DNA of 51,285 bases from Bacteroidota bacterium (lineage in GTDB: Bacteria; Bacteroidota; Bacteroidia; Chitinophagales; Saprospiraceae), in the NCBI GenBank assembly GCA_963169325.1, contig CAUJEY010000134.1, positions 1 through 51,285 on the forward strand. The letters are read 5' to 3'. The notes below the pieces were generated by a model. It did not search any database. It saw nothing but the letters and a program-made list of their open reading frames with translations, and was not told the DNA's origin. Positions 1 through 49,535 of the stretch are shown here, one piece after another (positions within the stretch are counted from its first letter, which is position 1; each line of letters starts with the position of its first letter). A program made the translations under genes and the position numbers.

Positions 1-107
1 CGAGGCACGAGCAGGCGACATCTCGAAAACCAGAAAAGAATACACCATTTGAAGTTAAAAAAGGTCTAGCTTCAACTGTTTTTGAGATGTCGCCTGCTCG
101 TACCTCG
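1..107. repeat. Inverted repeat, two 30-base arms
   Basis: Bases 1-30 and 78-107 are reverse complements with two mismatches. A second, inner pair (TTGAAG near 49-54 and CTTCAA at 70-75) extends the fold, so the 107 bases could form one long hairpin. The left arm begins exactly at the window edge, so the element may be longer. It encodes nothing evident. Size and symmetry fit a MITE-like or REP-like palindromic element, or the 3' hairpin of an upstream gene outside the window. There is no T-run after the right arm, which argues against a simple terminator. Confidence 0.75.
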
Positions 108-154
108 CAGACTACACCTCAAAAACCGGCCATGTCCGACAAACCGAGAGTTGC

Positions 155-250
155 CACTCAACCAATAACCACTCAACCAATAACCACTCAACCAATAACC
201 ACCTAACCAATAACCACCTAACCAATAACCACTCAACCAATAACCAATCA
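155..250. repeat. 15-base tandem repeat upstream of the MoxR gene
   Basis: Six copies of a 15-base unit (core AACCAATAACC followed by ACTC or ACCT) run to within about 20 bases of the MoxR start codon, the last copies decaying. There are no spacers, so this is not a CRISPR array. Any promoter of the operon must lie in or upstream of this array; I could not recognise a TAnnTTTG box between 108 and 267. Copy-number change here could alter the 5' leader. Confidence 0.85.
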
Positions 251-267
251 ACTAATCAACCAACCAC

Positions 268-1410
268 ATGGATCAAAAAAAACCGGTCGCCCAACTCAAC
301 GCGGTACTTGCCCACCTGAAGGAAATCTTCATTGGCAAAGACGATATCATCGACCTGCTGGGCATCTGTCTGGCTGGTCGCGAAAACCTGTTTCTGCTCG
401 GTCCGCCGGGCACGGCCAAGAGTGCCATGGTGCGCGAATTGTCGAAACTGTTGCACGGCAAAACCTTCGAGTATTTGCTCACCCGTTTCACCGAACCCAA
501 CGAGATTTTCGGTCCCTTCGACATTCGCCGGCTGCGGGAGGGCGATTTGGTGACCAATACCGAGGGGATGTTGCCCGAAGCGAACCTGGTTTTTTTAGAC
601 GAACTTCTGAATGCCAACAGTGCTATTTTGAACAGCCTGCTCATGGTGCTGAATGAGCGTATCTTCCGCCGGGGCCGCGAAACCCGCGCTTTGCCGGCCC
701 TGATGATTGTGGGCGCCAGCAATCATTTGCCCGAAGACGAGGCCCTGCAAGCCCTGTTCGACCGCTTCCTGATTCGGGTGCGTTGCGACAACGTTGATCC
801 GGAAATGCTGAACGCGGTGCTCGATGCCGGCTGGAAATTGGAAAAAAAAGAACCGGCTACGCAGCCGGGTATCGACTGCGAAGATATTTTCCGCCTGCAG
901 GCGCAGATCGGCGCCATTGATTTGCAGGGAATCCGGACGACCTACCTCGATCTGATCCAGAAACTGCGCAATGCCGGAGTGGCGGTGTCCGACCGCCGGG
1001 CTGTTAAATTGCAACGGCTGATCGCTGCCAGCGCCCTGCTTTGCCAGCGTACGGCGGCTATTCCTTCCGACATGTGGATACTGCGTTATATCTGGGACAC
1101 GGAGGAGCAGCGAGAAGTGATTGCCGGAATCGTCAACGGCGCGCTGGAGGCCGATATGGCCGGACCGGAACAGCATCATCCGCAAGCTTCGGCTAACGCC
1201 CTGCCCAACGCCGACGATATTTTCCGGGAGGTGACCAACCTGAGCGAAAAATGGATGCAGGCCGACCTGCCCATGTCCGAGCGGGCCGTTATCAAAGACC
1301 GCCTGCGTTACCTGAACGGCCGTTGTGCCTGGATCGGCAATGCCGCCCAGCGCCAGTTTGTGCAACAGCCGATTGATGCGTTGTGGGACCAGATTATGAA
1401 GGGTTTATGA
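268..1410 (+). CDS. MoxR/RavA-like AAA+ ATPase (first gene of ternary operon)
   Basis: A 380-residue cytosolic ATPase of the MoxR family. Walker A is GPPGTAKS at residues 45-52, Walker B is LVFLDE at 107-112, the sensor-1 region is VGASN near 148-152, and an arginine follows in DRF near 165-167. The stretch around 74-92 (FTEPNEIFGPFDIRRLREG) is the RavA-like MoxR signature. MoxR ATPases act as chaperone-like motors and usually work with a von Willebrand A (vWA) partner; the third gene of this operon supplies one. The C-terminal 190 residues are helical and probably form the lid and partner-binding part. The ATG at 268 is the first in frame after the tandem repeat. ATPase family assignment is firm; the client is unknown. 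Confidence 0.93.
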   Translation: MDQKKPVAQLNAVLAHLKEIFIGKDDIIDLLGICLAGRENLFLLGPPGTAKSAMVRELSKLLHGKTFEYLLTRFTEPNEIFGPFDIRRLREGDLVTNTEGMLPEANLVFLDELLNANSAILNSLLMVLNERIFRRGRETRALPALMIVGASNHLPEDEALQALFDRFLIRVRCDNVDPEMLNAVLDAGWKLEKKEPATQPGIDCEDIFRLQAQIGAIDLQGIRTTYLDLIQKLRNAGVAVSDRRAVKLQRLIAASALLCQRTAAIPSDMWILRYIWDTEEQREVIAGIVNGALEADMAGPEQHHPQASANALPNADDIFREVTNLSEKWMQADLPMSERAVIKDRLRYLNGRCAWIGNAAQRQFVQQPIDALWDQIMKGL

Positions 1411-1419
1411 TGGGTTTTT

Positions 1420-1452
1420 ATTCACCGGGTGACTCAAAGTCACCCGGTGAAT
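1420..1452 (+). other. Perfect 14-bp hairpin between genes 1 and 2 of the ternary operon
   Basis: ATTCACCGGGTGAC, a five-base loop TCAAA, then the exact reverse complement. It starts ten bases after the MoxR stop codon and ends 22 bases before the next start. No T-run follows, so full termination is unlikely. A role in mRNA processing, stability or partial attenuation (more MoxR than partners) is an inference. It is also symmetric enough to be a protein-binding operator. Confidence 0.8.
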
Positions 1453-1474
1453 AGCCCGAAATATCAACACTTAT

Positions 1475-2179
1475 ATGAAAGAATTCATCATCGTATTAGC
1501 AGAAAAAGATGTCGACGCCCTCGGCTATATCCGTTGCCGGCCGCAGGCGCAGGCTGCCGTACAGGAGGGGCAAATCTGGTTGCGCGGTATTTTTGCAAAA
1601 GAACAACCGGAGCTGACAATCCGGCAATTGCCGGCGCAGCGGACCTACCGGCTGGGCGATGGCAATTTGCTGTTCCTGCCGGGCGGCCTGACCCCCGTGG
1701 GTCAATTGCCCAAACTTCCCTGGCAGCCGTTGACCAGATTCCTGCCGGTTGAATTGCCGGTTTCCGCCCTGCCGGCCGTAGTGGAGCGCCGGGTGTCGCT
1801 CCGGGTAATCCCATCGGGGCGGGTGGAGCAAGGCGCTGCCCTGCTGGCGGATTGGCCTGTTTGGGCGACGTATGCAGACACTGCTCCAATTATCCGGCTC
1901 CGGCGCCTGCGTTTTGCCGCTTCGACACAGGGCAAAGCGCTGATTTTGGGTGATGTGCTGCCGCCGGTGCCGGGGCGGGAATACTGGATGCGCGACGGAA
2001 TTTTACTGCCCGGCGGTTTTGATTTTGAATTTCCCGTAGTGTCGGAACTGGTTCAAAAAAAATATAACCCGGATAATGATTCCGTGTTGCTTTTTGATGA
2101 AAACGGCAGCCTGGATAAAATTAGTCGAAGCCATTTTGTAGCGGCCACACGAAGCGCCGTGCGAGGGACCACATTATGA
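1475..2179 (+). CDS. bpX-like protein of a MoxR-vWA-beta-propeller ternary system
   Basis: A 234-residue protein with no signal peptide or membrane segment and no known enzymatic motif. It has a short N-terminal alpha/beta stretch, a motif of the type LLFLPGGLTPVGQLPKLPW near residues 65-85, and a beta-rich second half. Its position after a MoxR ATPase and its small size fit the stand-alone bpX accessory proteins of MoxR-vWA-bpX ternary systems; I cannot assign the bpX subfamily number without a profile search. Its stop codon overlaps the next start as ATGA (2176-2179), so the two are translationally coupled. Biochemical function is unknown. Confidence 0.7.
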   Translation: MKEFIIVLAEKDVDALGYIRCRPQAQAAVQEGQIWLRGIFAKEQPELTIRQLPAQRTYRLGDGNLLFLPGGLTPVGQLPKLPWQPLTRFLPVELPVSALPAVVERRVSLRVIPSGRVEQGAALLADWPVWATYADTAPIIRLRRLRFAASTQGKALILGDVLPPVPGREYWMRDGILLPGGFDFEFPVVSELVQKKYNPDNDSVLLFDENGSLDKISRSHFVAATRSAVRGTTL

Positions 2180-4560
2180 ACAATTTGAGAAAAATCGTCC
2201 TCGATTATTTCACACCACCGCCCGGTCATTTCTGGAAATGGTGTGATAACGGAGAAGCCGTCGAATGGCGGCTTCAGGGGGAGACGATATGCTATACGGC
2301 GGATTTAATGAACGTTTTGCGGGGGCTAACCGACATCGGGCTGCCTCCGCTGGGTACGGTATTGATCCTGCTGGCGGCTTGCCAGGAACGGGAGGATTCC
2401 ACCAAGCTGGATTCTTATATTCGTATGCTGTCCGAGGTGTCGAAAACCCAGTTTGGGCGGGCCTTCCGGATACATCCCCTGGCGCGTACCATGCTGCGCC
2501 AGGTGCAGACACTACCGTCCGACTTGCGCACCGGCAACAGCCGTATTCACCTGATCCGGGAAATTTTGGACACCGAAGCGACGAAGAGCCGGGCGACACA
2601 GGTTCCGCCGGAACTGGTGCAGGCGGTGCTCGACGAGTTTTCCAGTGGTAGAACCGACCGCTCTGTTTTCCAGGAACGCCGGGAGTCGGGAAAGCAATTT
2701 TTGTTGATTGAAATTATCCCGCTGGCTTTTGCCTGCCGCAAATTTCCGGAGCCCAACAGTCTGGAAGAACACCTGCGGACGGGCTTGCCGGCGCCGCCGG
2801 TACCCGCTGAACTACCTCTACCGGAACCTGGCCCGATCGACCTGCTCGATGAACTGGAAGACGACCCCAAAACGATGGGCCTGGCGCGTCTGGCGCGACG
2901 TATGCTGGCCGCCCTAAATATCCCGATGCATGCCCGCGGGGCGAGCGACCTGCCCATTGGCGGGGTTGCGGACATTTCCAACCGGGGCGATTTCGATCGC
3001 CTGCTGCTGAGCGAACTGGCGCACGACGACCTCACCCTCACCGCCCGCCTCGTGAACAATGAAGCCCTCTTTCTTCGTCGCGAAGAACCGCCGGCCAACC
3101 TGGACCGGCAGCGCACCATACTGGTAGATACCACCCTGAAAATGTGGGGTGTACAGCGGGTATTTGCTTTGTCGACGGCCCTGGGCTTTGCGCGAAACAG
3201 CCGGCACGTCACTGCCATCCGGGCCTTTGCGTTGGGCGGCAGCCGGCACGAGGAAATAGACCTGAAAAGTAAAGCGGGCGTTATGGCCGCACTCGAACAA
3301 CTCGATAGCGCCTTGCATTGCGGCAATGCCCTGGGTCAGTTTTTTGCAAAAGCCCCCCGGACCGACAACGAAGACTATGTCCTGATCAGTGATGCGGAGG
3401 CCATGCGGGACGAAAGTTTTCAGGCCGCTTTTTCAGAAATCCGCCAACGCCTGCGCTTTTTGGTTACCCTGCACCGCGATGGGTCACTGGAGTTTTTTGA
3501 ATTTGTACAAGGTCGGGGTAAACTTATCGGCAAGCCTAAATTCGACCTGGACGCGCTGCTTTTTGCGCCGCCAAAATCATCCCAAAAACCGGCCCTCCTG
3601 GCCGGGCCGAGACAATGGCCCGCCTTTTTTCAACGGGTTCCGCCCCCGCTCTTTTTCCCGCTGACGGCAGTTCGGATGACCCGGCAAAATACCTGTTTTG
3701 ATAAAGACTTCGGCGTGGTGGTGGTGACCGATCATCAGCGCGTGTTGCACTGGCCCAAGGACCGGTCCGGCGCGCTGGAATTGGCGCCCTTTATCGAATC
3801 CGGCCAATACGTGATCGGTTTTAGCAAATACGGAGAAATATTTATCCTGGTGCATCATACCGTTGGGGGCGCTTTGTATCTGTACCATTTTAACGGCCCG
3901 GGGAATGTTGCCAAAACAGACTTCCCGGAAGGATTTGCCGGCGCTTCTGCCGTCGCCTACGATCAGGGCAAATTTTACATTCAAATCTCGAAGGACATTC
4001 AGATGATTGATGCAGCAACCGGACAAAAGGCCGGCGTTTTTCTGGAACCGGACCCCATCTTCGGCTACTACCAACGCCGGCTGGCCAGGATCAATTTTTA
4101 CGACATCAAGCAATTTATCCGGCACACCTATTCCACCATTCAACGGGTAAAAAGTATCTATATAACCAGTTTCGGCGAGTTGTGCGTCGATAATCATTAC
4201 CTTCGGTTGCTCGATCAGGATCATTTGAAATGGGATGCAGGGGCCGTGGCGGAATCGCGCAATGTGGATGCCGGCGCCCTGCCTGAAAACGCGCAAAGTT
4301 TGCTTTACGAACGAACCTGGCCGAATGGCAGTCGGGCTATCGCCGATTCGCGCGGGTTTCTGCACCTGATACCGGCCGGCAAGGACCTCCCGGAAGTGAC
4401 TATCGTGCTGATTGCCAATGCCATGACAGCCGCCTGGGCTTCCAACAGCGCAACCTGCGGAAGTAACCTTTTTATAAACGACCCAACCTCGAAACACCTG
4501 CCCGCGGCCGAATTTTATGACAAGTATATAAAATCGTTTATTGATCAATGCGGGCAATGA
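2176..4560 (+). CDS. vWA-like and C-terminal beta-propeller protein of the ternary system
   Basis: A 794-residue cytosolic protein. Residues 1-300 are mostly helical and not recognised. Residues about 312-470 look like a vWA domain: strand TILVDTTLKMWG with Asp318 at the MIDAS position, CGNALG where the MIDAS threonine loop is expected, and LISDAEA with Asp406 on a later strand. The first motif is DTTLK rather than DxSxS, so metal binding may be altered. From about residue 500 to the end, repeated short beta-strand blades (for example FGVVVVTDHQRVLHWP, YVIGFSKYGEIFILVHH) suggest a beta-propeller. MoxR ATPases typically remodel or are targeted by vWA partners. Coupled by ATGA overlaps on both sides. 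Confidence 0.75.
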   Translation: MNNLRKIVLDYFTPPPGHFWKWCDNGEAVEWRLQGETICYTADLMNVLRGLTDIGLPPLGTVLILLAACQEREDSTKLDSYIRMLSEVSKTQFGRAFRIHPLARTMLRQVQTLPSDLRTGNSRIHLIREILDTEATKSRATQVPPELVQAVLDEFSSGRTDRSVFQERRESGKQFLLIEIIPLAFACRKFPEPNSLEEHLRTGLPAPPVPAELPLPEPGPIDLLDELEDDPKTMGLARLARRMLAALNIPMHARGASDLPIGGVADISNRGDFDRLLLSELAHDDLTLTARLVNNEALFLRREEPPANLDRQRTILVDTTLKMWGVQRVFALSTALGFARNSRHVTAIRAFALGGSRHEEIDLKSKAGVMAALEQLDSALHCGNALGQFFAKAPRTDNEDYVLISDAEAMRDESFQAAFSEIRQRLRFLVTLHRDGSLEFFEFVQGRGKLIGKPKFDLDALLFAPPKSSQKPALLAGPRQWPAFFQRVPPPLFFPLTAVRMTRQNTCFDKDFGVVVVTDHQRVLHWPKDRSGALELAPFIESGQYVIGFSKYGEIFILVHHTVGGALYLYHFNGPGNVAKTDFPEGFAGASAVAYDQGKFYIQISKDIQMIDAATGQKAGVFLEPDPIFGYYQRRLARINFYDIKQFIRHTYSTIQRVKSIYITSFGELCVDNHYLRLLDQDHLKWDAGAVAESRNVDAGALPENAQSLLYERTWPNGSRAIADSRGFLHLIPAGKDLPEVTIVLIANAMTAAWASNSATCGSNLFINDPTSKHLPAAEFYDKYIKSFIDQCGQ

Positions 4561-7241
4561 AACTCACCTATTCCGAAACCACCCAACACCCGGTATCGGC
4601 GGCTTTTATCGAAGGCGCTTCACCGGAAAAATGGCTCGCGGAGATCAACCGCTGGGGCGTCCCTTTTCGGGAGTTGGAATGTTATGTATTGCCTGAATCG
4701 CTGCGCTCGGTGGAGCCTGCCGGCCTGTTGGTTGTTTTTAAAAATAGCGCGGCGTTGCATGGGCTGGACATGAAAAATCCATATTGCCGGGTGGCGGATC
4801 GGCTGTTTATTCCCCTGCATACGGCCATTCACCCCGAAATCGGCGCAGAGGAGTGGCACAGGTTGCTGAGCTGGGAGGTGCAGGTGCTGCACCCCACGAT
4901 CGGGCTGGTCGGTTTTCATCATAGCGACCGCCTGGACCCCGTATCGCTGCTGGCGGAAAGCCCGGCTGCCGGCATCGACTGGTCGCTGGCCAAGCCGGGA
5001 TTGCCGCCCAAACCCGTGCTGGAATACATCGAAGTGCGGCGCCCGAGCCCGGAAGAAGTGATGAATTCTATTCGGGAGGATTTGGATACCCGCCCGCTTG
5101 CGGATATTCCGAAGGAAGAAGAAGATGAGCCCACGCCCTTGCAAAAAGCGCTCGATCAGGCCAAAAGGGGCGTTATTAAAGGTACTTTAAATGCCCTGGA
5201 CAAACTGAACGACGCTTTACCGGAGTCCAAAGGCGGCGGTTCGGGGTGGTTGAATAAATTTCAGGATTGGCTCGAACGCAACCTGCAAGAACTGGAACGC
5301 CGGCGCAATAATGAACTGCAGCGCCTGGTCAACTTGTTCGACAAAAACAGCGACGAAGCGCTCAAATACGCCATTCCGTTGGACGATTCGTATGCCACTC
5401 GCGGTACGGCGCCGCCCACTTGGAAACTTGGGCCACGCAGCGCCAATTTCGACCTGAGCCGTATCGGCGGCGGCGGTGCTGCCGATACCTGGGATGCCGG
5501 TGCGTATTACAACGATTTGCGCAGCAAATACCAAAAAGCCGCACAGGAAGCCATCGCGAGAGGCGATTTCCGCAAAGCCGCTTATATCTATGCCCACTTG
5601 TTGAGCGATTTTCATTCAGCGGCCAATGTGCTGAAACAAGGCGGCCATTTCCGCGAAGCGGCGGTATTGTACAAAGATCACCTGAAAAACCTGCCCGCCG
5701 CCGCCGGATGCCTGGAAGAAGGCGGTTTTTTTCAGGAAGCCATCGACGTGTACGACGAACTGAAGCAGTATGAAAAAGCGGGCGACCTTTGCCAACAGAT
5801 CGAACGGCCCGAAAAGGCCGCCGGGTATTACGAAAAGAGCCTGGAGGTGCTGCTGAACAACGAAGACCACCTCAATGGCGCCCGTATAACAAACGACAAA
5901 CTGCTGCAACCGGAACGCGCCCGGGACATGCTGTTGCAAGGCTGGCAGGGCAACAAGCAGGCGGAGACGTGCCTGAAGCAATATTTTGACCGGACGGTGG
6001 AAAACGAACCGGAAAAAACCCGGCAGCGGATACAGGACGTATTTGAACAACAAACTCCGCGGGCAAAACGCCCCCTGTTTTTGAATGTCCTGTTGCACCT
6101 CAACGACCAATATCCGGCGCCCGAAGTACGGGATACCTCCCGCCATATTGCTTACGAAATCCTGGGCGATGCCGCGAGCCGCGGCGACCTGAGCAAATTG
6201 AGTACGCTTTCAAAGTTTTTGCCCGGCGACCGCATGATCACAAGTGATACGAGCCGGTTTATCCACCATCAAAAAAAGGCCGCCGCGCACCGGCAGGCGG
6301 CAGCCCGGATACAACTCGACAGTAGTATTCAATGGCTGAATGCCACCGGCTATCACAATCAGTTTCTGGCCGCCGGCGTCAAAGACGGGCGCCTGCACCT
6401 GGCCCGGGGCAACTGGTACGGCTATGTGGAATACTACTCCTGGGAACAACCGGTGTACGACAATCCGCGGCCGGCATTCGTCCTGAATCAACACGAGCAT
6501 CCGCAGGTGATCATCCGTTGCGCCGGCCGGCAAAGCCTCGAACAGAAAATATTGCCGAAAAACGACCATTTCGATACGGAATTGCTCGTCGGCTGCCCGG
6601 ATTGGTTGCCTGAGCAGGCGATGGGGCTAAGTTTCGACCGCGCGGATCATCTGGTAGCCCTGGTGGATACCCATGATAAACTGGAGCTGCAATATTATAC
6701 CCGGACAGGCGAATTACAGCGCACGTCCACTTGTGTCGTTCCGGGGCCGGAGGAGATACCGGCTTCCGCTGTCGCCGGCTTTCCGGGCCTGATTGCCCAT
6801 GGCGACAGGTATTATTGCTTTATCGAAAACCTGCTGCTGCGCTTCGACGATCACGGAAAAACAGAAGTAAGCAACACCCTTTGGCGGATTCGTCAATTAT
6901 GCGTTTCGGATACGTTTCAGGATTTTCGAATGGTGGCGCTCACCGACAACGGCTGCGCCCTGATACAACTCGACTTCGAAATGGAAGTACGGGAATTGGA
7001 TTTTTTTGCCCCGAATTTTACGCCGGTCACGGGCGCCTTTCTACCCGGCGGGCGTTTTGTGGTGGCTTCCCGCGACGAGGTGAAACTGTTTCACATCAGC
7101 AAAGCCGGGGCGTTTTATCAAAAATCCCTGGAAAACGGCTCGGATGTCCGCCGGGTGGCCGTTTTGCCGGTATCCGACCGCGACCGGTGCGCGATACTGG
7201 ATGCGTGGGGGGAGATACGGGTGTATGAGATAAATCAATAA
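4557..7241 (+). CDS. bpX, helical-repeat and beta-propeller protein of the ternary system
   Basis: I chose the ATG at 4557 because it overlaps the upstream stop as ATGA, as at the previous junction, and gives an MKLTY start; an ATG at 4548 would add three residues. The 894-residue product has an N-terminal bpX-like domain (about 1-140, with RLFIPLHTAIHPEIG and HPTIGLVGF motifs), a charged linker, a TPR/clathrin-like helical repeat region (about 320-450, units such as GDFRKAAYIYAHLL and GGHFREAAVLYKDHL), and a C-terminal beta-propeller (about 590-894). No catalytic motif is visible, so it is probably a recognition or scaffold subunit. Its 3' end overlaps the convergent cydB gene by 7 bases. 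Confidence 0.75.
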   Translation: MKLTYSETTQHPVSAAFIEGASPEKWLAEINRWGVPFRELECYVLPESLRSVEPAGLLVVFKNSAALHGLDMKNPYCRVADRLFIPLHTAIHPEIGAEEWHRLLSWEVQVLHPTIGLVGFHHSDRLDPVSLLAESPAAGIDWSLAKPGLPPKPVLEYIEVRRPSPEEVMNSIREDLDTRPLADIPKEEEDEPTPLQKALDQAKRGVIKGTLNALDKLNDALPESKGGGSGWLNKFQDWLERNLQELERRRNNELQRLVNLFDKNSDEALKYAIPLDDSYATRGTAPPTWKLGPRSANFDLSRIGGGGAADTWDAGAYYNDLRSKYQKAAQEAIARGDFRKAAYIYAHLLSDFHSAANVLKQGGHFREAAVLYKDHLKNLPAAAGCLEEGGFFQEAIDVYDELKQYEKAGDLCQQIERPEKAAGYYEKSLEVLLNNEDHLNGARITNDKLLQPERARDMLLQGWQGNKQAETCLKQYFDRTVENEPEKTRQRIQDVFEQQTPRAKRPLFLNVLLHLNDQYPAPEVRDTSRHIAYEILGDAASRGDLSKLSTLSKFLPGDRMITSDTSRFIHHQKKAAAHRQAAARIQLDSSIQWLNATGYHNQFLAAGVKDGRLHLARGNWYGYVEYYSWEQPVYDNPRPAFVLNQHEHPQVIIRCAGRQSLEQKILPKNDHFDTELLVGCPDWLPEQAMGLSFDRADHLVALVDTHDKLELQYYTRTGELQRTSTCVVPGPEEIPASAVAGFPGLIAHGDRYYCFIENLLLRFDDHGKTEVSNTLWRIRQLCVSDTFQDFRMVALTDNGCALIQLDFEMEVRELDFFAPNFTPVTGAFLPGGRFVVASRDEVKLFHISKAGAFYQKSLENGSDVRRVAVLPVSDRDRCAILDAWGEIRVYEINQ

Positions 7242-8263
7242 CTCATATCATCCATCCTTACTTTGCCTTTAAAGGTCCAAAATACAAAAGCGGTGTACAG
7301 CCCGACAAGCGGAGTGCCGATCAGGGCAATCGTTAGCAGCAGTCCCATTGTTTTTTCGCTGGATGCTGCATTGACGACGGTGATACTGTTGGCGGGGTCA
7401 TTGGTCGCAAACACCAAAAACGGATACACCTCCACGGCCACGGTAACCAGCAGGGAGGCAATGGTGATGGCTGAACTGATAAACGCCCATCGGTAGTTTC
7501 CGCGTGTCAGTTGCCGCGGAATATTGGCCACCGCAAGTACCATGATGACAGGCAGGATAAACAACTGTGGGTTGGAGCGGATTTGGTCGCTCAAATGTGG
7601 GATATACAACAGTGTGTACAGCGAGGTTAGCGTAAAAGCGACAACAAAAAATATGGTGAAGTTTTTGGCCAGCACGGTCAATTTGGCAAACAGCCGGTTT
7701 TCCGTTTTCATAGCCAGAAAAATTGCCCCGTGCATCATAAAAAGTGCCAGGGTCGTGATGGCAACCAGTAGGCTGAAGGGGTTGAAAAAATCCAGCCAGT
7801 TCCCGGCAAACTCGTGGTTCGTATCGAGCGGGATGCCGAGCGCTACGTTGCCGAGAATCAGCCCGAGCGATAACGTAACAGTGGTGCATGCGAAAAAATA
7901 GATAAAGTCCCAACTCGCCCGCCACAAGCGTCCCGGTTCTTTGCTGCGAAACTCGATGGCAACTGCCCGGTAGATCAGCCCGACGAGAAAAATCATAAAC
8001 GGGACATAAAAGGCGGAAAAAATAGCAGCATAAGCCACCGGGAAGCCCGCGAACAACGCGCCTCCCCCGATGACGAGCCACACCTCGTTGCCGTCCCACA
8101 CCGGCCCGATTGCATTGAGGGCAATGCGGCGGCTTTCCTCTTTTTTCAAAAACAAATGCAGCGCGCCCGCGCCGAGGTCGAAGCCGTCGAGAATGGCATA
8201 GCCGGAAATGACTGCGCCGAAGACTAAAAACCACCAGGTGGAATATTCAATACCGAGGAACAT
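7235..8263 (-). CDS. cydB: Cytochrome bd quinol oxidase subunit II
   Basis: A 342-residue polytopic inner-membrane protein with family-diagnostic motifs near the N-terminus: ILDGFDLGAGALHLF (about 24-38) and GPVWDGNEVWLVIGGGALF (about 53-71). With CydA it forms the bd-type terminal oxidase that oxidises quinol and reduces oxygen to water, typically with high oxygen affinity and tolerance to NO, sulfide and peroxide. It follows cydA by 23 bases and must be co-transcribed. The stop overlaps the convergent ternary-system gene. No small CydX-like gene is evident downstream. Confidence 0.96.
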   Translation of the reverse strand: MFLGIEYSTWWFLVFGAVISGYAILDGFDLGAGALHLFLKKEESRRIALNAIGPVWDGNEVWLVIGGGALFAGFPVAYAAIFSAFYVPFMIFLVGLIYRAVAIEFRSKEPGRLWRASWDFIYFFACTTVTLSLGLILGNVALGIPLDTNHEFAGNWLDFFNPFSLLVAITTLALFMMHGAIFLAMKTENRLFAKLTVLAKNFTIFFVVAFTLTSLYTLLYIPHLSDQIRSNPQLFILPVIMVLAVANIPRQLTRGNYRWAFISSAITIASLLVTVAVEVYPFLVFATNDPANSITVVNAASSEKTMGLLLTIALIGTPLVGLYTAFVFWTFKGKVRMDDMSY

Positions 8264-8286
8264 ATTTTGTTTGGATTGTGCGGTTT

Positions 8287-9681
8287 TTATGATTTTTTAT
8301 GATCGCGCATCAGTGGGTTTTCCCGCCGGGAAAACGTTTCGTTTTCTTCCTGGTGTTGGGACCCGTCTTCCGGCCCGTGCTGAATTTTTCGCGTCAGCAG
8401 GTAAAGAAACAGCACAAGCAAGACCATATAAACCAAGGTGAACATTACCAGGGAAAACAAAATCTGGTTGGCCGTTACGGTGCGCGAAAAGGCATCGCTG
8501 GTGCGCAACAGACCATATACCACCCAGGGTTGCCGGCCCATTTCGGCTGCAAACCACCCTGTTTGATTGGCTATTTGCGGTAGTAGCACCGCCCATACAA
8601 ATACCTGCAGGAGCCAACGTTTTTCAAACAGTTTCCCGCGCCGCCACATCCAGGCGCCCAGCAACGACAATCCGATGAGGATCATCCCTATGGCAACCAT
8701 GATGTGGTAAAACTGGAAAACGGCATTCACCTGCCGGGGGCGTTCGTCTTCCGGGAAACTGTTCAGGCCGCGAACGGGCGTTTCAAAATCCTGATGCAGC
8801 AAAAAAGTGAGGCCGCCGGGTATGCCGAGCCCGGTTACTTTTTGCTCTTTTTGATTGACCCAGCCGAGTAAATACATATCCGCCACTGCCAGAGAGTCAT
8901 AATGTCCTTCCAGTGCAGCGAGTTTCGCCGGTTGGTTTTTAGCCACGCCGTCGGCACTGCGGTGCCCGGTGAAGAGTTGAGCCAGAGAAGCAACTACTGC
9001 CACCACCAGGGCAATTTTAAACGCGGGTTTGGCGATGGCTAAGTGGCGATTTTTTAAAATATACCAGGCGTTTACACTCAATACCAAAAAAGCCCCGGCG
9101 AGAAAAGAGCCGATCCACACGTGCGAGAGCCGGTCCACGCTGGACGGATTGAATACCATAGCCCAAAAATCGGTGATTTCTGCGCGGGCAGCCAGGCCTT
9201 CCCCCACGATATGGTAGCCGGCCGGTGTTTGCTGCCAGGAGTTGGCCACCACAATCCATACAGCCGAAAACATAGAGCCCAGCCAAACCATAACCGTTGA
9301 AAAGAAGTGGACACGCGGGCCCACCCGGTTCCAGCCAAACAGCAAGACGCCGAGGAAGCCGGATTCGAGCGCAAAAGCAAAAATGCCTTCAGCGGCCAGG
9401 GCCGAGCCGAATACGTCGCCTACGTATTTGGAATAGGTAGCCCAGTTGGTGCCGAATTCAAATTCCATCACAATACCTGTTGCCACCCCGATGCCGAAAA
9501 TGAGGGCAAATATTTTGATCCAGAACCGGGTCATCTGTTCATAAATTTTTTTTCCGGTGCGCAGGTACATACCTTCCATAATGACCAGAATCAGGCCTAA
9601 CCCGATACTTATCGGCGGGTATATGTAGTGGAAGGCGATGGTGAAAGCGAATTGGACGCGGGCGAGTATTTCAGTATCCAT
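8287..9681 (-). CDS. cydA: Cytochrome bd quinol oxidase subunit I
   Basis: A 464-residue polytopic membrane protein carrying the quinol site and hemes. Visible hallmarks are [11 protein letters not shown] with the heme-ligand His near residue 18, [17 protein letters not shown] with the conserved Glu near 104, and GRQPW in [16 protein letters not shown] before the last helices. It is shorter than the 522-residue E. coli protein, consistent with the short Q-loop form common outside enterobacteria. First gene of cydAB; a CRP/FNR-type palindrome lies about 85-100 bases upstream of its start. I did not find a convincing TAnnTTTG promoter on this strand. Confidence 0.96.
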
Positions 9682-9764
9682 GAAGTTGCAGTTACGGTAT
9701 GCATATCGTTTGAAACGGGATTAGGTTCATCATCCGGCGGGATTTCAGACGAGAATTTCAGGGC

Positions 9765-9780
9765 TGTGATAAATATCACG
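9765..9780. promoter_or_regulatory. CRP/FNR-type palindromic operator between cydA and the MBL-rhodanese gene
   Basis: TGTGA-TAAATA-TCACG contains the perfect inverted repeat GTGATA-AA-TATCAC (9766-9779). The half-site spacing TGTGA-N6-TCAC is that of the CRP/FNR superfamily, including HcpR-type regulators of Bacteroidota. It sits in the 250-base divergent spacer, 84 bases from the cydA start and 152 bases from the MBL-rhodanese start. Control of cydAB by a redox- or NO-sensing member of this family is plausible but inferred. Confidence 0.6.
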
Positions 9781-9931
9781 GAAAAGCGCCTGTACATATC
9801 CCCAACTTTGCAGCGTTGTTCCCCGGTAAAATATAAAATCAGCGCAAAACAGGGTTATCTTAGCCGTGTGTTGATACCTTCCATCGGGCATAGCACTACG
9901 CAATTATTTAAAAAATAAAATTTTCTACATC

Positions 9932-11341
9932 ATGTTTTTCCAACACGTATATGACAAAAGCCTGGCACAAGCCAGTTATTTCATCGGCTGTCAAAAAGCC
10001 GGCGTCGCCATGGTAATTGACCCTAAAAGGGATGTGGACACTTACCTCGAAATTGCCAAACAGAACAACATGACCATCACCCATGTGGCCGAAACGCATA
10101 TCCATGCCGATTTTCTTGCCGGCTCGCGCGAACTGGCCGCCCTCACCGGCGCGCAATTGTATCTGTCCGATGAAGGCGGTCCGGATTGGCAATACCAGTT
10201 CCCGCACAACGGTTTGCACGACGGCGATGTCATTAAACTGGGTAATCTTTCCTTCAAAGTGATGCACACCCCCGGCCACACGCCCGAAAGTATCAGTTTC
10301 CTGCTCACCGACCACCCGGCATCCGACAATCCCGTGATGTTGTTCACCGGCGACTTCGTTTTTGTAGGCGACATAGGGCGCCCCGATTTGCTGGAAAAAG
10401 CCGCCGGTCTCAAAGGCACGCAGGATTTGGGCGCGCAACAAATGTATAAGTCCATCAAAAAATTTGCCGACCTGCCCGACTATATCCAGGTGTGGCCCGG
10501 CCACGGCGCCGGCTCCGCTTGCGGAAAGGCCTTGGGCGCCGTACCGAGCTCCACGATCGGCTACGAAAAAGTCCGGAACTGGGCTTTTCAGTACGATTCG
10601 GACGAACCCGGTTTCGTACAATACCTGCTGGCCGACCAACCCGAGCCGCCCAAGTATTTTGCCATGATGAAAAAGCTCAACAAGGTGGACCGCCCCTTGT
10701 TGACCGAAGTGCCGAAAGTCAAAAAATTTGGCGCAGCCGAACTTATTGCCAACCTGGGCAAAGGGATAAAACTCATTGATGCCCGGAACAAAGCCGATTT
10801 CGCGGCAGGCTTCATCCCCGGCAGCATCAATATCCCCGGCAACAACGCTTTTGCCACCTGGGCCGGCTGGTTTTTAGAATACAATGAGCCGTTTATCGTG
10901 GTGGCTGCCGAAGAACAAATGGAAGACCTGACCCGCAAACTCATGCGTATCGGCTTAGACAACCTCATCGGTTATGTGGACAACGTGAACGATTGGGCAA
11001 CCCACACGGGTCAGTCGCTCGAAACAGGCAAGGTAATTTCGGTGGACGAATTCAAAAACCTGAAGCAGCAAAACAACCTGCAACTGGTAGATTTGCGCGG
11101 CGCCTCCGAATACAAAACGGCGCACATCCAGGGGGCCGACAACATATTCGTAGGTACGATCGAGAAAAATCTTGATAAAATCAGCAAAGACCGCCGGGTG
11201 GTCATCCACTGCCAGGGCGGCGACCGGGCCGCTATCGCCTATTCCATTTTGGCCAAACACGGCTACGACAACGTGCTCAACTACACTGCCGGTATGAACG
11301 AATGGATCAACGAGGGGAATCCGGTGGTGTCTGAATCTTGA
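9932..11341 (+). CDS. MBL-fold persulfide dioxygenase-like protein fused to two rhodanese domains
   Basis: A 469-residue cytosolic protein. The metallo-beta-lactamase-fold part (about 1-240) has the ETHE1-like metal motif ETHIHAD (His56, His58, Asp60), His116 in HTPGHTPES, Asp141 in FTGDF and His191 in WPGHGAG. Two rhodanese domains follow. The first (about 265-360) has FIVVAAEE where the catalytic Cys loop should be and is probably structural. The second (about 370-465) keeps Cys427 in HCQGGDRA. The expected reactions are oxidation of glutathione or other low-molecular-weight persulfide to sulfite and sulfur transfer between thiols. Divergent from the sulfide-tolerant bd oxidase, which fits a shared role in reactive sulfur handling. 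Exact substrate is inferred from the family. Confidence 0.9.
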   Translation: MFFQHVYDKSLAQASYFIGCQKAGVAMVIDPKRDVDTYLEIAKQNNMTITHVAETHIHADFLAGSRELAALTGAQLYLSDEGGPDWQYQFPHNGLHDGDVIKLGNLSFKVMHTPGHTPESISFLLTDHPASDNPVMLFTGDFVFVGDIGRPDLLEKAAGLKGTQDLGAQQMYKSIKKFADLPDYIQVWPGHGAGSACGKALGAVPSSTIGYEKVRNWAFQYDSDEPGFVQYLLADQPEPPKYFAMMKKLNKVDRPLLTEVPKVKKFGAAELIANLGKGIKLIDARNKADFAAGFIPGSINIPGNNAFATWAGWFLEYNEPFIVVAAEEQMEDLTRKLMRIGLDNLIGYVDNVNDWATHTGQSLETGKVISVDEFKNLKQQNNLQLVDLRGASEYKTAHIQGADNIFVGTIEKNLDKISKDRRVVIHCQGGDRAAIAYSILAKHGYDNVLNYTAGMNEWINEGNPVVSES

Positions 11342-11382
11342 TCAGGAAACGAGAATGGTTCCAATGCGCAATCTTGCGTTTG

Positions 11383-14300
11383 TCATCTGAACACCGTCAC
11401 GGCTCCTTTCAATATTATGGTTTCTCCCAGGGCCATGCGGAGCATATAGTAGTAGGTGCCTTGCGGCACCAATTTGCCGGTACCTGATTTACCATCCCAT
11501 CCGCCGTTGGGGTAATCGTCGGCATGCCAGACGATTTCACCCCAACGGTTCAGGATTGTCATACTGACCCTGCCGTTGGGCACGATGAATTTTTTATCTT
11601 TAAAATAAAAAAGCGGGTCAAAAGTCGGGTTGAATTCATCGTCGTTGGGGCTGAACGCGTTGGGCATTTCTTCGGCGGCTTCCACCAGGCCGTCCTGCAC
11701 TACCAGTACCACGCGGCCGGTGTCGCAGGGGCCCGTGCAGAAGGTATCGCAGAGCTGGTACGTGAACGAGTCTACGCCGAGAAAGGCGGTATTCGTCAGC
11801 CGGTACACCAGCGTGCCGCCGGGGGCGAGTATGGCCGTGCCGGCTTGGGGAGCGTCGAGCAGGGTGGTCAACCAGGCGCCGCCAACGGGGAGCAGATCGT
11901 TTTGCACGAGACTAAAGGTACGTTCCGACAGTCCGAGACCGGGCGGGTAGAACAACGTGTCGTCCAGCGCCGCGTATGTTTTGGGATCGGCAAACTCCAG
12001 GGTCAGGTTCACGGTACTGTCGCAGCCGGCAGCGGAAAGCAGCGGGATTTCGTAAAAACCCGGTTCGGTGTACGCTTTTCCTCCGACGTACCAGGGCATG
12101 CTGTCGCAAACCACCACATCGAGATCGACGGAAACAGGCATCCCAACATTTATCGTTATGTCGTCCTGCGCCCGGCAACCGATATTGTCCTGAATTTCAA
12201 CGGAATAGATTGTTTTGGTATTGGGTTTTACCAGGATAGTGTCTTTGTCGCCCGGAACACTCCATTGGACGGAGCAACCCGTGCATCCCGTCTTTTTAGC
12301 AATCAGCAGCAGGGAGTCGCCTAAGCAAATGTTTGCATCGGGGCCGAGTGTGACGTCCGGTATGCGGACACTGAGGGTCAGTTGCACCGTACTGTCGCAG
12401 CCGTTGTTGCCCATCAGGACGCGCGTGTACATTCCCGGCGCCTGCACTATGGTGTCGCCGAGGGTGTACGCATCACCGATACAAATGGCCGCCGACACGG
12501 CAGATAACACCTGTTGTACGAAGGTAACCGGCGTTCCGGGCGCTACCGACAGGCAGGCATTGTTCAGGTCGATACTGCCGGGGCCGTTTTGTGTTCCGGC
12601 TATCGCCGAAATGTAGTATTGATTGCCATATACCACCCCGCCTGTAAAGGCGAACGTGGGTACGGTATTCCAGGCGATTGGGTTGGCCAGGTTGGAGCCG
12701 CTGCCCTGGTGGAGCACGAACAGCAGAATTGCGCCCGGCGCCAGAAACTGATCCTGCTGATGAAGCGCCGTCACCGGGGTGTCGCCGCAAACGATGAGCG
12801 GGGCGGGGTCCATCGTACCGGCCTGGGTGATGCAATTGCAGTCGTGCAAGCCGTTCACCACTTGCGGCGGGCAGTCCTCCGCATCGCTGAAGCGGTAGGT
12901 ATAGACCGAACCGCTGGGGATTACCGGCCCGGTGAACTGGCTGCCGGCAATTGCGCCGAGTCCGGACAATTCCTTATACGGCGGCGTGCCGCCTGCGAGC
13001 GTGAGCGTGACCCGGTAGGAGTCGTCGGCTCCCTGACAATCTTCCAGCAGGTTCTGGGTTTCCATTGGGGCCGGGCCGAATACCTGGGCGATTTGAACAA
13101 AAGTGCATCCCCCTGCGTCGGTGATGGTGACGGTGTAGGTGCCGGCCGGCAAACCGGAAATATCTTCGGTGGTGTCGCCGGTATTCCACAAAAACGACAG
13201 CGGTGGAGCGCCGGCCGCGGGGATCAGATCAATCATACCGATAGGTTGGCCGCAGGCGGCCGGTTGGGGCAGCGCGGCGGCATTGGGGCCGTCGAGGTTG
13301 CCGACCGTGACGGTGGAAACAGCGCTGCAGTTGTTGGCGTCGGTGATGGTGACGGTGTAGGTGGCGGCGGGGAGGGTGATGCGGTCTTCTGTGTTCTGTA
13401 CACCGGGCAGGTCGGCCCAATCGAAGCGGAATGGCGCGGCGCCAGTGGGGAGGAGATCAATTTTTCCATCCGATTTGCCGCAGTGCGCCGGACTGGCTGA
13501 AGGGTTGGGAACAGGAGCAGCCCATACTTCTGCCTGGGCCGTAGCGGTTGCAGAGCAGCCGTTGGCATCGGTAACGGTGACAGTGTAGACGCCGCTCATG
13601 GCCGAGGTGGCGTCGGGGCGCTGCGGATTTTGCTGGGAGGAAGTGTAGGCGCCGGGGCCGGACCAGGTGTAAGTGATGCCGCCGGAGGCGTTGAATGAGA
13701 TAGAAGCCCCGCTGCACAATGCGCTTGGATTGGCACTAGCCACTGGTTGTGGCAAGGCGTTTACGGTGACGTTGACCGTAGCGGTGGCGGTGCAGCCGTT
13801 GGCGTCGGTGACTGTGACGGTGTAAATGCCGCTCATGGACGGGGTGGCATCGGGGCGCTGCGGATTTTGCTGGGAGGAAGTGAAGCCGCCGGGACCGGAC
13901 CAGGTGTAAGTGATGCCGCCTGAGGCGTTTAGTGAAACAGAAGCCCCGCTACACAACTCGGCTGGATTGGCAGTAGCCACTGGTTGCGGCAGCGCGTTTA
14001 CGGTGACGTTGACTGTGGCGGTGGCGGTGCAACCGCCTGGCTCCGTGAGGGTCACGGTGTAAACGCCGGCCTGCGCCGGTGCGACGGGATTTTGCTGGCT
14101 GGAAGCGAAGCCGCCGGGCCCGGACCAACTGTACCCGGCGCCCGGCCCGCCCCCGCTTGCCGACAAGCTGACCGAAGCGCCCGGACAGGCCAGGGCAGGC
14201 CCGCCAGCCAGCACCGAAGGGAAGGAAATTTTAAGTACCCTGCCGATAGCGCCGGCAGCGTAAGCCGTTGCGCTATCGGCAAAAGAGACGTCGTAGAGGG

Positions 14301-15126
14301 TTTCCGGGATGGTTGGATTGGAAATGTCCGTCCAGACCGCACCGCCGTCCTGAGTACGGAACACCTTGCCCCCCGAGCCGGCCAGCAGGGCTTTTTGGCC
14401 ACTCCAGGCGGCCAGTCCGTTCCAGTTGCCGCCGACAGCCGTTTGTGCGCTCCAGTTGTCGCCGTTGTCGGCTGATTGCCAGACCGCGCCGCCATCACCG
14501 GCCATCCATGCGCGTGTATCGGCCAGCGCCGCCACCCGGAAATTGCCGGCAACCGGTCCGCTCAGCGGCGCCCAGGTTTGTCCGCCGTCCGTACTGCGCA
14601 GCGCTACGCCGCCTTCGCCGCAGGTCAGGGCCAGATTGCCTTCCATCGCGATGGAGTACAGGGTGTTGGAAGTACCCGAGGGCGTCAGCACCCAGGTAGC
14701 CCCGCCGTCCGTGGTGCGCAGGATGACGCCGCACTCGCCGGCGATCAGCCCCGTCAGGGCCGATGAGAAGGCCACATCGTACAGGTCGCTGCGCACCGGG
14801 CTTGTTTGCATACGCCAGTTCGCGCCCGCGTTCGAAGTGTGCCGGATGAGCCCCCGGTCGCCGACGGCCCAGCCGTTGTTGTCGTCGCGGAAATACAATC
14901 CCTGAATGGTCTGCGCCGTGCGGGCATCCTGGTCTGCCCAGGTAGCCCCGCCGTCCGTGGAACGGCGCAGCGTCCCTCCCTCGCCGGCCACGTAGCCACG
15001 ATCGGGCTGGGTGAAAAAGACTGCATGCAGGCCGGCCGTCGTTCCGCTCGCGAGGGGGGATACGCATTGGCTCCGGGCCGCGAGGGGCAGGAAGAAGGCG
15101 AAGAGGAATAGGGTTGATTTATTCAT
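11383..15126 (-). CDS. T9SS-secreted surface protein: YCF48-like propeller, SprB/Ig-like repeats, type B sorting domain
   Basis: I chose the ATG at 15126 because it opens a clear signal peptide (MNKSTLFLFAFFLPLAARSQ); the in-frame ATG at 15324 would overlap the upstream gene. The 1247-residue product has YCF48/BNR-like repeats at about 22-300 (GWAVGDRGLIRHTS, ILRTTDGGATW), several SprB/Ig-like repeats at about 310-680 (PxCSGASVSLNASGGITYTW; YTVTVTDANGCTATAT), further unrecognised beta domains, and a terminal gliding-motility-type sorting domain beginning near NAFSPNDDEFNPTFDP and ending ILKGAVTVFR. This C-terminus directs export by T9SS and anchoring or release at the surface. The gene lies 110 bases downstream of the FGE-repeat gene on the same strand. 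Ligand unknown. Confidence 0.9.
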   Translation of the reverse strand: MNKSTLFLFAFFLPLAARSQCVSPLASGTTAGLHAVFFTQPDRGYVAGEGGTLRRSTDGGATWADQDARTAQTIQGLYFRDDNNGWAVGDRGLIRHTSNAGANWRMQTSPVRSDLYDVAFSSALTGLIAGECGVILRTTDGGATWVLTPSGTSNTLYSIAMEGNLALTCGEGGVALRSTDGGQTWAPLSGPVAGNFRVAALADTRAWMAGDGGAVWQSADNGDNWSAQTAVGGNWNGLAAWSGQKALLAGSGGKVFRTQDGGAVWTDISNPTIPETLYDVSFADSATAYAAGAIGRVLKISFPSVLAGGPALACPGASVSLSASGGGPGAGYSWSGPGGFASSQQNPVAPAQAGVYTVTLTEPGGCTATATVNVTVNALPQPVATANPAELCSGASVSLNASGGITYTWSGPGGFTSSQQNPQRPDATPSMSGIYTVTVTDANGCTATATVNVTVNALPQPVASANPSALCSGASISFNASGGITYTWSGPGAYTSSQQNPQRPDATSAMSGVYTVTVTDANGCSATATAQAEVWAAPVPNPSASPAHCGKSDGKIDLLPTGAAPFRFDWADLPGVQNTEDRITLPAATYTVTITDANNCSAVSTVTVGNLDGPNAAALPQPAACGQPIGMIDLIPAAGAPPLSFLWNTGDTTEDISGLPAGTYTVTITDAGGCTFVQIAQVFGPAPMETQNLLEDCQGADDSYRVTLTLAGGTPPYKELSGLGAIAGSQFTGPVIPSGSVYTYRFSDAEDCPPQVVNGLHDCNCITQAGTMDPAPLIVCGDTPVTALHQQDQFLAPGAILLFVLHQGSGSNLANPIAWNTVPTFAFTGGVVYGNQYYISAIAGTQNGPGSIDLNNACLSVAPGTPVTFVQQVLSAVSAAICIGDAYTLGDTIVQAPGMYTRVLMGNNGCDSTVQLTLSVRIPDVTLGPDANICLGDSLLLIAKKTGCTGCSVQWSVPGDKDTILVKPNTKTIYSVEIQDNIGCRAQDDITINVGMPVSVDLDVVVCDSMPWYVGGKAYTEPGFYEIPLLSAAGCDSTVNLTLEFADPKTYAALDDTLFYPPGLGLSERTFSLVQNDLLPVGGAWLTTLLDAPQAGTAILAPGGTLVYRLTNTAFLGVDSFTYQLCDTFCTGPCDTGRVVLVVQDGLVEAAEEMPNAFSPNDDEFNPTFDPLFYFKDKKFIVPNGRVSMTILNRWGEIVWHADDYPNGGWDGKSGTGKLVPQGTYYYMLRMALGETIILKGAVTVFR

Positions 15127-15236
15127 TTTTGTAGTGTCACAAAATTTCAAATAGCGTAACGGTTTTTCGAAATCCCGCCGGAAAGCGGTATGGTAAAAAA
15201 CGCTCATAAGTAAAGCCGGTATGAACTGCCAACTGA

Positions 15237-49483: not shown

Positions 49484-49535
49484 CGTGTATTAAATTGACC
49501 ACATTTAAAACACATTACCGCAACAAATACACCGG
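49463..49535. repeat. Inverted repeat formed by the converging 3' ends of two adhesin genes
   Basis: The 21-base arms 49463-49483 and 49515-49535 are reverse complements with two mismatches. They encode the final residues and stop codon of the two convergent adhesins (GPVHLLR-stop and GPVYLLR-stop). The 31-base spacer contains the 23-base sequence shared with 36469. The structure could act as a bidirectional terminator, although no strong T-run follows. Confidence 0.75.

What the first reader, a model, noticed from the sequence alone, without database searches (positions are those of the whole stretch)
268..7241. Complete MoxR-vWA-bpX ternary operon of unknown mechanism
Four genes in one direction, two of the junctions ATGA-coupled, encode a RavA-like AAA+ motor, a small bpX-like protein, a vWA-like protein with a C-terminal propeller and a bpX/helical-repeat/propeller protein. 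This matches ternary systems predicted computationally as NTP-dependent conflict or stress devices. No toxic effector or nuclease is visible inside the operon, so either a propeller protein is the effector platform or the effector lies left of the window. The altered vWA metal motif (DTTLK) adds to the interest.
Basis: partly seen in the sequence, partly recalled or inferred. Interest (0 to 1): 0.75.

Follow-up and report, generated by a model that had tools for sequence, protein, structure and literature searches.

The report
MoxR-vWA propeller operon, one gene short
Four neighbouring genes encode a known but unstudied ATP-driven protein machine whose fifth gene lies just off the contig, and in related bacteria the same machine sits beside RNA-repair genes and rows of tRNA genes, which gives a first testable hint of its job.

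Summary
The operon is real and belongs to a described kind, the beta-propeller-containing MoxR-vWA ternary system (Kaur 2020): Pfam bpMoxR, bpX2, bpX0/bpX1, bpX3. It is not complete. A fifth gene, bpX4, stands upstream of moxR in 87 of 89 relatives. Here it is on contig C80, whose end equals the window's first 105 bases inside a dispersed repeat that broke the assembly. No conventional effector was recognised among recurrent neighbours (unannotated clusters judged by eye). DTTLK is a family trait: D 55/55, S/T 54/55, K/R 51/55. The surprise is in relatives: in Flavobacteriales the operon sits in islands with RNA ligases, nucleases, a cyclic-phosphate receiver, SPFH proteins and tRNA arrays. 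Of 36 loci with such neighbours, 29 hold 3 or more tRNAs and 12 hold 10 or more; ARAGORN puts 276 of 276 on the operon's strand, Rfam adds one on the other. The window's own clade shows no such linkage, so an RNA-damage role is carried over by homology only.

The parts
1..130 (.). copy of a dispersed palindromic repeat at the contig end (assembly break); its first 105 bases equal the end of contig C80, which carries bpX4 (L051:206-841, minus strand of C80)
   Evidence: 86 matches in the own genome, the window's own included; exact 105-base overlap; RNA fold -58.9 kcal/mol, z -9.28
154..262 (+). 7.2 copies of a 15-bp tandem repeat directly before moxR
   Evidence: Tandem Repeats Finder
268..1410 (+). 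gene 1: bpMoxR AAA+ ATPase, P-loop GPPGTAKS, RavA-like
   Evidence: Pfam PF20030 3.9e-102; PDB RavA 2.7e-56; alignment A2
1420..1452 (.). perfect 15-bp inverted repeat between genes 1 and 2; one of 20 sites in the genome at up to 3 mismatches
   Evidence: RNA fold -33.8 kcal/mol, z -8.32
1475..2179 (+). gene 2: bpX2 protein
   Evidence: Pfam PF19918 3.3e-67
2176..4560 (+). gene 3: bpX0 (residues 35-198), conserved block 226-306, divergent vWA (about 306-470, pseudo-MIDAS DTTLKMWG at 318-325), propeller-like region (about 470-716), bpX1 (714-792); the vWA and propeller assignments are inferred
   Evidence: Pfam; alignments A3, A6; motif counts; ViaA alignment; hhalign
4557..7241 (+). gene 4: bpX3, soluble linker, TPR-like helical repeats, C-terminal propeller-like region (upstream alternative start at 4548)
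   Evidence: Pfam PF19919 6.1e-48; PDB profile hits; hhalign; no TM-like segment

Best explanation
The locus is four of the five genes of a beta-propeller MoxR-vWA ternary system: bpX4 - MoxR - bpX2 - bpX0/vWA/propeller/bpX1 - bpX3/TPR/propeller. Shown: family membership, gene order, the first gene on the neighbouring contig. Inferred: MoxR forms a RavA-like hexamer. The vWA protein docks on it as co-chaperone through its most conserved block (residues 226-306). It uses a metal-poor pseudo-MIDAS with a lysine or arginine in place of the third serine to hold a partner or client. The bpX3/TPR/propeller protein is the scaffold that holds the client; many relatives seem to anchor it in the membrane, this copy is soluble. 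ATP turnover then remodels the client, as in RavA-ViaA and NorQ-NorD. The likeliest client is a protein complex of an RNA-damage or translation-stress response rather than a self-killing effector, because the sister subtype in Flavobacteriales is built into islands of RNA-repair genes and tRNA arrays.
For: Pfam hits. Five components in the same order wherever present in 89 relatives: MoxR 89, bpX2 89, vWA 88, bpX4 87, bpX3 84; misses lie at contig ends except bpX4 in L055. RavA match. ViaA alignment. Gene 3/gene 4 C-terminal similarity. TM-like segments in bpX3 ORFs of 55 of 84 relatives. RNA-repair neighbours and tRNA arrays. In 199 Flavobacterium genomes the island's ATP-grasp-like gene (E up to 1e-40) is in 12 of 13 with bpX2 and 6 of 186 without (p 4e-14), the island's SPFH gene (E up to 1e-60) in 9 of 13 and 41 of 186 (p 7e-4); shared ancestry is not corrected. 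Distances to bpX2 are 4.7-11.6 kb for the ATP-grasp-like gene in 11 of 12 genomes (the twelfth 3.4 Mb) and 3.3-10.0 kb for SPFH in 9 of 9.
Against: The window's own clade (Saprospiraceae, Chitinophagaceae, Hymenobacter and others) shows none of the ten RNA-repair families nor a tRNA array. In the quick MoxR tree, loci with two or more of these families (24 of 80 rows) all lie in the flavobacterial part of the other deep clade. Three Flavobacteriales loci (L106, L110, L126) have none of them either. The own genome has no island-type SPFH (best 61.7 bits); its 48 detected tRNAs include ordinary clusters of 3 to 5 away from the operon, so small clusters alone mean little. RNA-repair islands may be hotspots for accessory systems. 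No structure could be predicted, and the vWA profile finds nothing in PDB at E up to 1.
Confidence: 0.45

Rival explanations
1. Counter-invader conflict device as proposed by Kaur et al.: MoxR-vWA sets a threshold, and the variable, often membrane-spanning middle of the bpX3 protein (or, in Flavobacteriales, a neighbouring nuclease) is the effector.
For: Kaur 2020 section 22. Patchy presence: 8 of 120 family genomes and 10 of 395 phylum genomes, own genome included in both. The middle of bpX3 is polymorphic: no TM-like segment here, one in 55 of 84 relatives, and bpX3 and TPR split into two genes in others. Nucleases recur beside the operon in Flavobacteriales.
Against: This copy has no TM-like segment in genes 1, 2 or 4 (one borderline segment at residue 51 of gene 3). 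No toxin or peptidase was recognised among recurrent neighbours, and nucleases recur only in the flavobacterial islands. PADLOC gives only E of 0.009 or more. tblastn with the window's bpX2 finds 0 of 50,697 phage records and 1 of 72,556 plasmids at E up to 1e-5, a search that reaches near relatives only. The bpX3 head of long forms is not the least conserved part.
Confidence: 0.3
2. Housekeeping-like chaperone for a respiratory or cell-envelope complex, like RavA-ViaA or NorQ-NorD.
For: RavA-like motor; cytochrome bd genes (PF02322, PF01654) directly downstream in the window; membrane segments in many relatives.
Against: The cytochrome bd genes face the other way, and no neighbour on the window's contig among those clustered groups with a neighbour of any relative. 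Presence is too patchy for housekeeping.
Confidence: 0.15
3. The Flavobacteriales linkage is hitchhiking in a hotspot; the RNA genes say nothing about function.
For: Island genes occur without bpX2: SPFH in 41 of its 50 carriers, the ATP-grasp-like gene in 6 of 18. Linked loci are clustered on the tree. Two of the 7 neighbour clusters shared by both flavobacterial groups are not RNA genes: a dehydrogenase-like and an acyltransferase-like protein (the latter named by eye).
Against: Exonuclease, SPFH and metallophosphoesterase recur mostly upstream in Flavobacteriaceae and downstream in Weeksellaceae, so the link outlived rearrangement. Of 47 neighbour clusters with at least 3 loci, 7 span both groups; 5 of the 7 are these three, DUF434 and the DUF4919 cassette, the last two through the single locus L113. 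ARAGORN tRNAs agree with the operon's strand in 276 of 276.
Confidence: 0.35

Closest known systems
Beta-propeller-containing MoxR-vWA ternary systems (Kaur, Burroughs, Iyer, Aravind 2020, eLife, PMC7159879; Pfam families bpMoxR, bpX0-bpX4, bpX6 seen)
   Same: MoxR with GxxxTAKS P-loop, divergent vWA with long extra N- and C-terminal regions, TPR/propeller third component, further conserved linked genes, no conventional effector; ribosomal L12 inserts in 12 of 55 vWA proteins, as they describe
   Different: This copy's third component has no TM-like segment; bpX4 is separated from moxR by a palindromic repeat; the RNA-repair/tRNA linkage of relatives is not in the text (the words RNA repair occur only in its reference list; its source data were not seen)
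RavA-ViaA of E. coli
   Same: Closest solved MoxR (E 2.7e-56); the vWA aligns along the domain including the MIDAS strand
   Different: ViaA keeps DTSGS, here DTTLK; no bpX gene is annotated beside ravA-viaA
NorQ-NorD (PMC13036017, abstract and passages read)
   Same: MoxR hexamer that twists a vWA partner; model for the action proposed here
   Different: Metal-insertion client, conserved five-residue MIDAS; no propeller scaffold in what was read
Bacterial RNA-repair systems with SPFH modules (Burroughs and Aravind 2016, recalled; paper not held) and the Anabaena trn operon (PMC10272220, passages read)
   Same: Flavobacteriales loci join RNA ligases, SPFH and tRNA arrays; in Anabaena a silent tRNA array is induced by translation stress, and TrcR also controls rtcB, a slipin and rimK
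   Different: No MoxR-bpX operon in the Anabaena passages read; the window genome has no such island at this locus

Membership tests
beta-propeller MoxR-vWA ternary system | MoxR component of the bpMoxR family with GxxxTAKS P-loop | tested here: met
   PF20030 3.9e-102; GPPGTAKS invariant in 14 of 14 aligned, window included
beta-propeller MoxR-vWA ternary system | vWA component with N-terminal bpX0 and C-terminal bpX1 | tested here: met
   PF19915 and PF19917 over cut-off; 55 of 55 proteins aligned, window included
beta-propeller MoxR-vWA ternary system | vWA fold between bpX0 and bpX1 | tested here: inconclusive
   ivWA 0.033, below cut-off; ViaA alignment, probability 30; no PDB hit at E up to 1
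beta-propeller MoxR-vWA ternary system | beta-propeller C-terminal to the vWA | tested here: inconclusive
   similar to the gene 4 C-terminus (probability 57); no Pfam propeller hit; structure prediction off
beta-propeller MoxR-vWA ternary system | third component with TPR and propeller regions | tested here: met
   bpX3 6.1e-48; profile matches to the WDR19 helical repeat (E 1e-4) and RIC1 (E 0.0023); the window's own TPR hits are below cut-off, so the propeller part rests on weak evidence
beta-propeller MoxR-vWA ternary system | membrane-spanning segment in the third component | tested here: not met
   none in this copy by a hydropathy scan; 55 of 84 relatives have one. Kaur et al. describe it as part of the variable region, so it is not treated as defining
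RavA-ViaA family proper | ViaA-type partner with intact DxSxS MIDAS | tested here: not met
   DTTLK; third Ser replaced by K/R in 51 of 55
catalogued anti-phage defence system | match to a PADLOC model | tested here: not met
   best E 0.0094 (genes 1-4; bpX4 not scanned); PADLOC-DB 2.0.0 may lack the family
RNA-repair island | linked RNA ligase, end-processing enzymes or tRNA array | tested here: not met
   no tRNA in the window, two single tRNAs on 20 kb of contig C80, none of the RNA-repair profiles in window 1-16000 or that stretch; met in Flavobacteriales relatives

The most novel reading that the evidence does not exclude
Propeller-type MoxR-vWA systems are ATP-driven machines of an RNA-damage response: they remodel a client complex so that cells hit by tRNA-cleaving agents (toxins or phage-triggered nucleases) can repair RNA and refill tRNA pools from a linked array. 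In the window's lineage the machine works in trans with unlinked RNA-repair functions.
Probability: 0.35. Interest if true: 0.8.

Novelty: new member of a known kind. Interest (0 to 1): 0.55.

Why it matters
Kaur et al. called these systems enigmatic because they carry no conventional effector. The genomic tie of the flavobacterial subtype to RNA ligases, nucleases and strand-matched tRNA arrays turns that into a direct experiment. The constant five-gene order adds bpX4 as a near-constant part, and the conserved D-x-[ST]-[IL]-[KR]-x-W-G motif points to a vWA site that may work without metal.

Tried and rejected
Linked effector: ORF clustering over 16 relatives, then over the nearest five genes on each side of 87 relatives with flanking genes plus the two own contigs, showed none that I recognised. 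PADLOC gave chance-level hits only. The hairpin between genes 1 and 2 is not an operon-specific regulator but a dispersed repeat: 20 sites, 0 for the reversed pattern. Mobility is not supported: 1 plasmid, 0 phage records. The nearest relative L055 (89% MoxR identity, MAG labelled Thermoanaerobaculia) speaks against a strict five-gene rule: no bpX4 in its 1.5 kb upstream and a foreign ORF inside the operon. A large tRNA array and an island SPFH in the own genome were looked for and not found (in one search, 150 of 359 candidates were scored). The Flavobacterium association is not corrected for shared ancestry.

The 36 loci were chosen because they had at least one neighbour family; L047, L070 and L114, which also had one, were left out there. 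L070 and L114 were scanned, L047 never (88 of 89 relatives scanned for tRNAs). The vWA alignment used 55 of 77 full-length proteins, the gene 4 alignment all 28 long forms found, window included in each. The first TM count, 58 of 93 ORFs, included duplicates and the window; one search recounts 55 of 84 relatives.
Full report
Observation. The junctions at 2176 and 4557 read ATGA; gene 4 also has an upstream ATG at 4548. Between genes 1 and 2 is a 64-bp gap with a perfect 15-bp hairpin, found at 20 sites in the genome at up to 3 mismatches, with 0 for the reversed control. Pfam places every gene in the set named after the 'MoxR-vWA-beta-propeller ternary system': bpMoxR, bpX2, bpX0 and bpX1, bpX3. 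PADLOC finds nothing convincing in genes 1-4 (best E 0.0094).

The operon is not complete. The window is the whole of contig C134 of a fragmented genome (349 contigs; contig length). Fifteen of them, aligned as A1, all match Pfam bpX4; the sixteenth (L048) has its copy one gene further upstream. Searching the own genome with A1 finds one copy, on contig C80 (E 2.6e-52), Pfam bpX4 4.4e-64. The end of C80 and the start of the window share exactly 105 bases, inside a repeat with 86 matches, the window's own included; C80 is the only other long match at 100 percent, the next full-length copies are at 92 percent. bpX4 therefore lies 367 bp upstream of moxR. The join gains support from L056, a near relative: it has bpX4 directly before moxR and, upstream of that, the same patatin-type gene as C80 (Pfam of the C80 copy). 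In relatives the bpX4-moxR gap is mostly small, and each of the ten gaps larger than 367 bp holds extra genes.

Family survey. A scan with the MoxR alignment gave 80 named relatives, the best 80 of 545; with the 16 and minus 7 duplicates, 89 remain. Six-frame profile searches find MoxR in 89, bpX2 in 89, vWA in 88, bpX4 in 87 and bpX3 in 84, in the same order wherever present, all five in 82. The misses are contig ends, except bpX4 in L055, the nearest relative, which has two other ORFs upstream (one looks like lipB, my reading). Presence is patchy: 8 of 120 genomes of the family and 10 of 395 of the phylum, own genome included in both, and 13 of 199 of the genus of G400, taken as Flavobacterium.

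The vWA. Over 55 proteins, window included, the motif is D318 55/55, S/T320 54/55, K/R322 51/55, W324 and G325 55/55, while the fourth-strand Asp is kept in 12/55 and the place that aligns with the ViaA MIDAS Thr is not conserved. hhalign with E. coli ViaA runs along the domain and lays DTTLKMWG on DTSGSMGG (probability 30, single-sequence template). So DTTLK is a family-wide pseudo-MIDAS. The most conserved stretch of the protein is residues 226-325, a candidate contact to MoxR (inference).

Gene 4. Residues 1-568 are shared with shorter relatives of about 575 aa; 28 long forms, the window included, were aligned. The helical region matches WDR19 (E 1e-4) and the C-terminus RIC1 (E 0.0023). 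Gene 3 and gene 4 C-termini resemble each other (probability 57; one control pair 1.3), in line with the homotypic contact suggested by Kaur et al. A hydropathy scan finds TM-like segments in bpX3 ORFs of 55 of 84 relatives, mostly between bpX3 and TPR (positions), but not in this copy. In Weeksellaceae and a few Flavobacteriaceae bpX3 and TPR are separate genes.

Neighbourhood. No neighbour on the window's own contig, of those clustered, groups with a neighbour of any relative, and the C80 patatin does so with L056 alone. In Flavobacteriales much recurs: RNase_T exonuclease (22 loci), RNase H-like (15, one of them L114, a Saprospiraceae MAG), SPFH (13), an ATP-grasp-like protein of 261 aa (13; that name is my reading, Pfam finds nothing), DUF434 (12), metallophosphoesterase (11), RLIG1-type RNA ligase (9), cyclic-phosphate receiver (7), endonuclease V (5), Rnl2-type RNA ligase (3), out of 91 sequences examined: 89 relatives, and window 1-16000 and C80 1-20000 without any hit. 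Pfam was run on one representative of each of these families. Exonuclease, SPFH and metallophosphoesterase sit mostly upstream in Flavobacteriaceae and downstream in Weeksellaceae; DUF434 is upstream. Of 47 neighbour clusters with at least 3 loci, 7 span both groups: these three, DUF434, the DUF4919 cassette, a dehydrogenase-like and an acyltransferase-like protein.

tRNA arrays. In 36 loci chosen for having such neighbours ARAGORN finds at least 3 tRNAs in 29, at least 10 in 12, up to 22; 276 of 276 are on the operon's strand. In the six loci given to Rfam there are 53 tRNA matches against 59 ARAGORN calls; one Rfam match, L113:7397-7467 at 40 bits, is on the opposite strand. Some upstream ARAGORN calls are odd (unclear or SeC anticodons). 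Downstream arrays of Weeksellaceae hold 175 tRNAs and no Ala, Gly or Val tRNA. Of 53 other sources (52 relatives and own contig C80) none has 3 or more. The own genome has 48 detected tRNAs with ordinary clusters of 3 to 5 elsewhere, so small clusters alone prove little.

Association. In 199 Flavobacterium genomes the ATP-grasp-like gene is in 12 of 13 bpX2 genomes and 6 of 186 others, SPFH in 9 of 13 and 41 of 186. One bpX2 genome (G694) has a weaker ATP-grasp-like match 3.4 Mb away, and one (G400) has none. In ten loci the bpX4-moxR gap carries a DUF4919-type protein and/or a membrane protein; one of the latter weakly resembles peptidase M50 (E 1.4e-4, below cut-off), another matches nothing.

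What this means for the window. The MoxR tree (quick method, midpoint root) splits into two deep clades; the window belongs with Saprospiraceae, Chitinophagaceae and Hymenobacter, and loci with at least two RNA-repair families (24 of 80 rows) lie only in the flavobacterial part of the other clade. The own genome has no island-type SPFH. The RNA link is therefore evidence about the family, carried to the window by homology.

Mechanism. I commit to an ATP-driven remodelling machine without its own effector, acting like RavA-ViaA or NorQ-NorD (PMC13036017, abstract and passages read), with an RNA-damage or translation-stress client as the best current guess. Membership itself I hold at about 0.97; the full statement at 0.45. 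Among the papers held, five contain both 'MoxR' and 'RNA repair'. Passages read in four show no link of this kind; the fifth, PMC10542128, bears the title of a preprint of PMC11090510 and was not opened. Burroughs and Aravind 2016 is not held, so a mention there cannot be excluded. Three papers combine at least three of the terms MoxR, ternary system, anti-phage and beta-propeller; in the sections and passages of them that I read I saw no experiment on a propeller-type system.

Noticed in passing
L112, L123, L130, L134, L100, L113 and others: tRNA arrays of 3-22 genes beside the bpX operon in Flavobacteriales; the 175 tRNAs of Weeksellaceae downstream arrays include no Ala, Gly or Val tRNA.
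   Followed up: yes
L112:9395-9976, L124:9263-9982, L125:7061-9347, L113:8654-9986: Cassette genes between bpX4 and moxR in ten loci: DUF4919-type proteins and multi-TM proteins, one weakly M50-like.
   Followed up: partly
window 1420-1452: Perfect 15-bp inverted repeat inside the operon, one of 20 sites in the genome, RNA fold -33.8 kcal/mol.
   Followed up: partly
window 1-130 and contig C80 end: Palindromic repeat with 86 matches in the genome, inserted between bpX4 and moxR and breaking the assembly.
   Followed up: partly
window 21238-23964 and 24988-28044: A caspase-domain protein (908 aa) next to a CHAT-TPR protein (1018 aa), on opposite strands, 14-21 kb right of the operon; both domains are common in conflict systems (recalled).
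   Followed up: no
window 15237-19292: 1351-aa protein with four FGE-sulfatase-type stretches.
   Followed up: no
window 38099-49483 and 49515-51285: 3794-aa ORF and, at the contig's right end, a SprB/CHU_C (type IX secretion) protein with 222-bp tandem repeats.
   Followed up: no
L055 (MAG labelled Thermoanaerobaculia): Operon 89% identical to the window in MoxR in a MAG labelled as another phylum, perhaps misbinned; no bpX4 upstream and an FG-GAP/UnbV_ASPIC ORF between bpX2 and the vWA gene.
   Followed up: partly
L109:3784-5493: A 569-aa ORF inserted between bpX2 and the vWA gene; by eye an ATPase-like protein, not searched.
   Followed up: no
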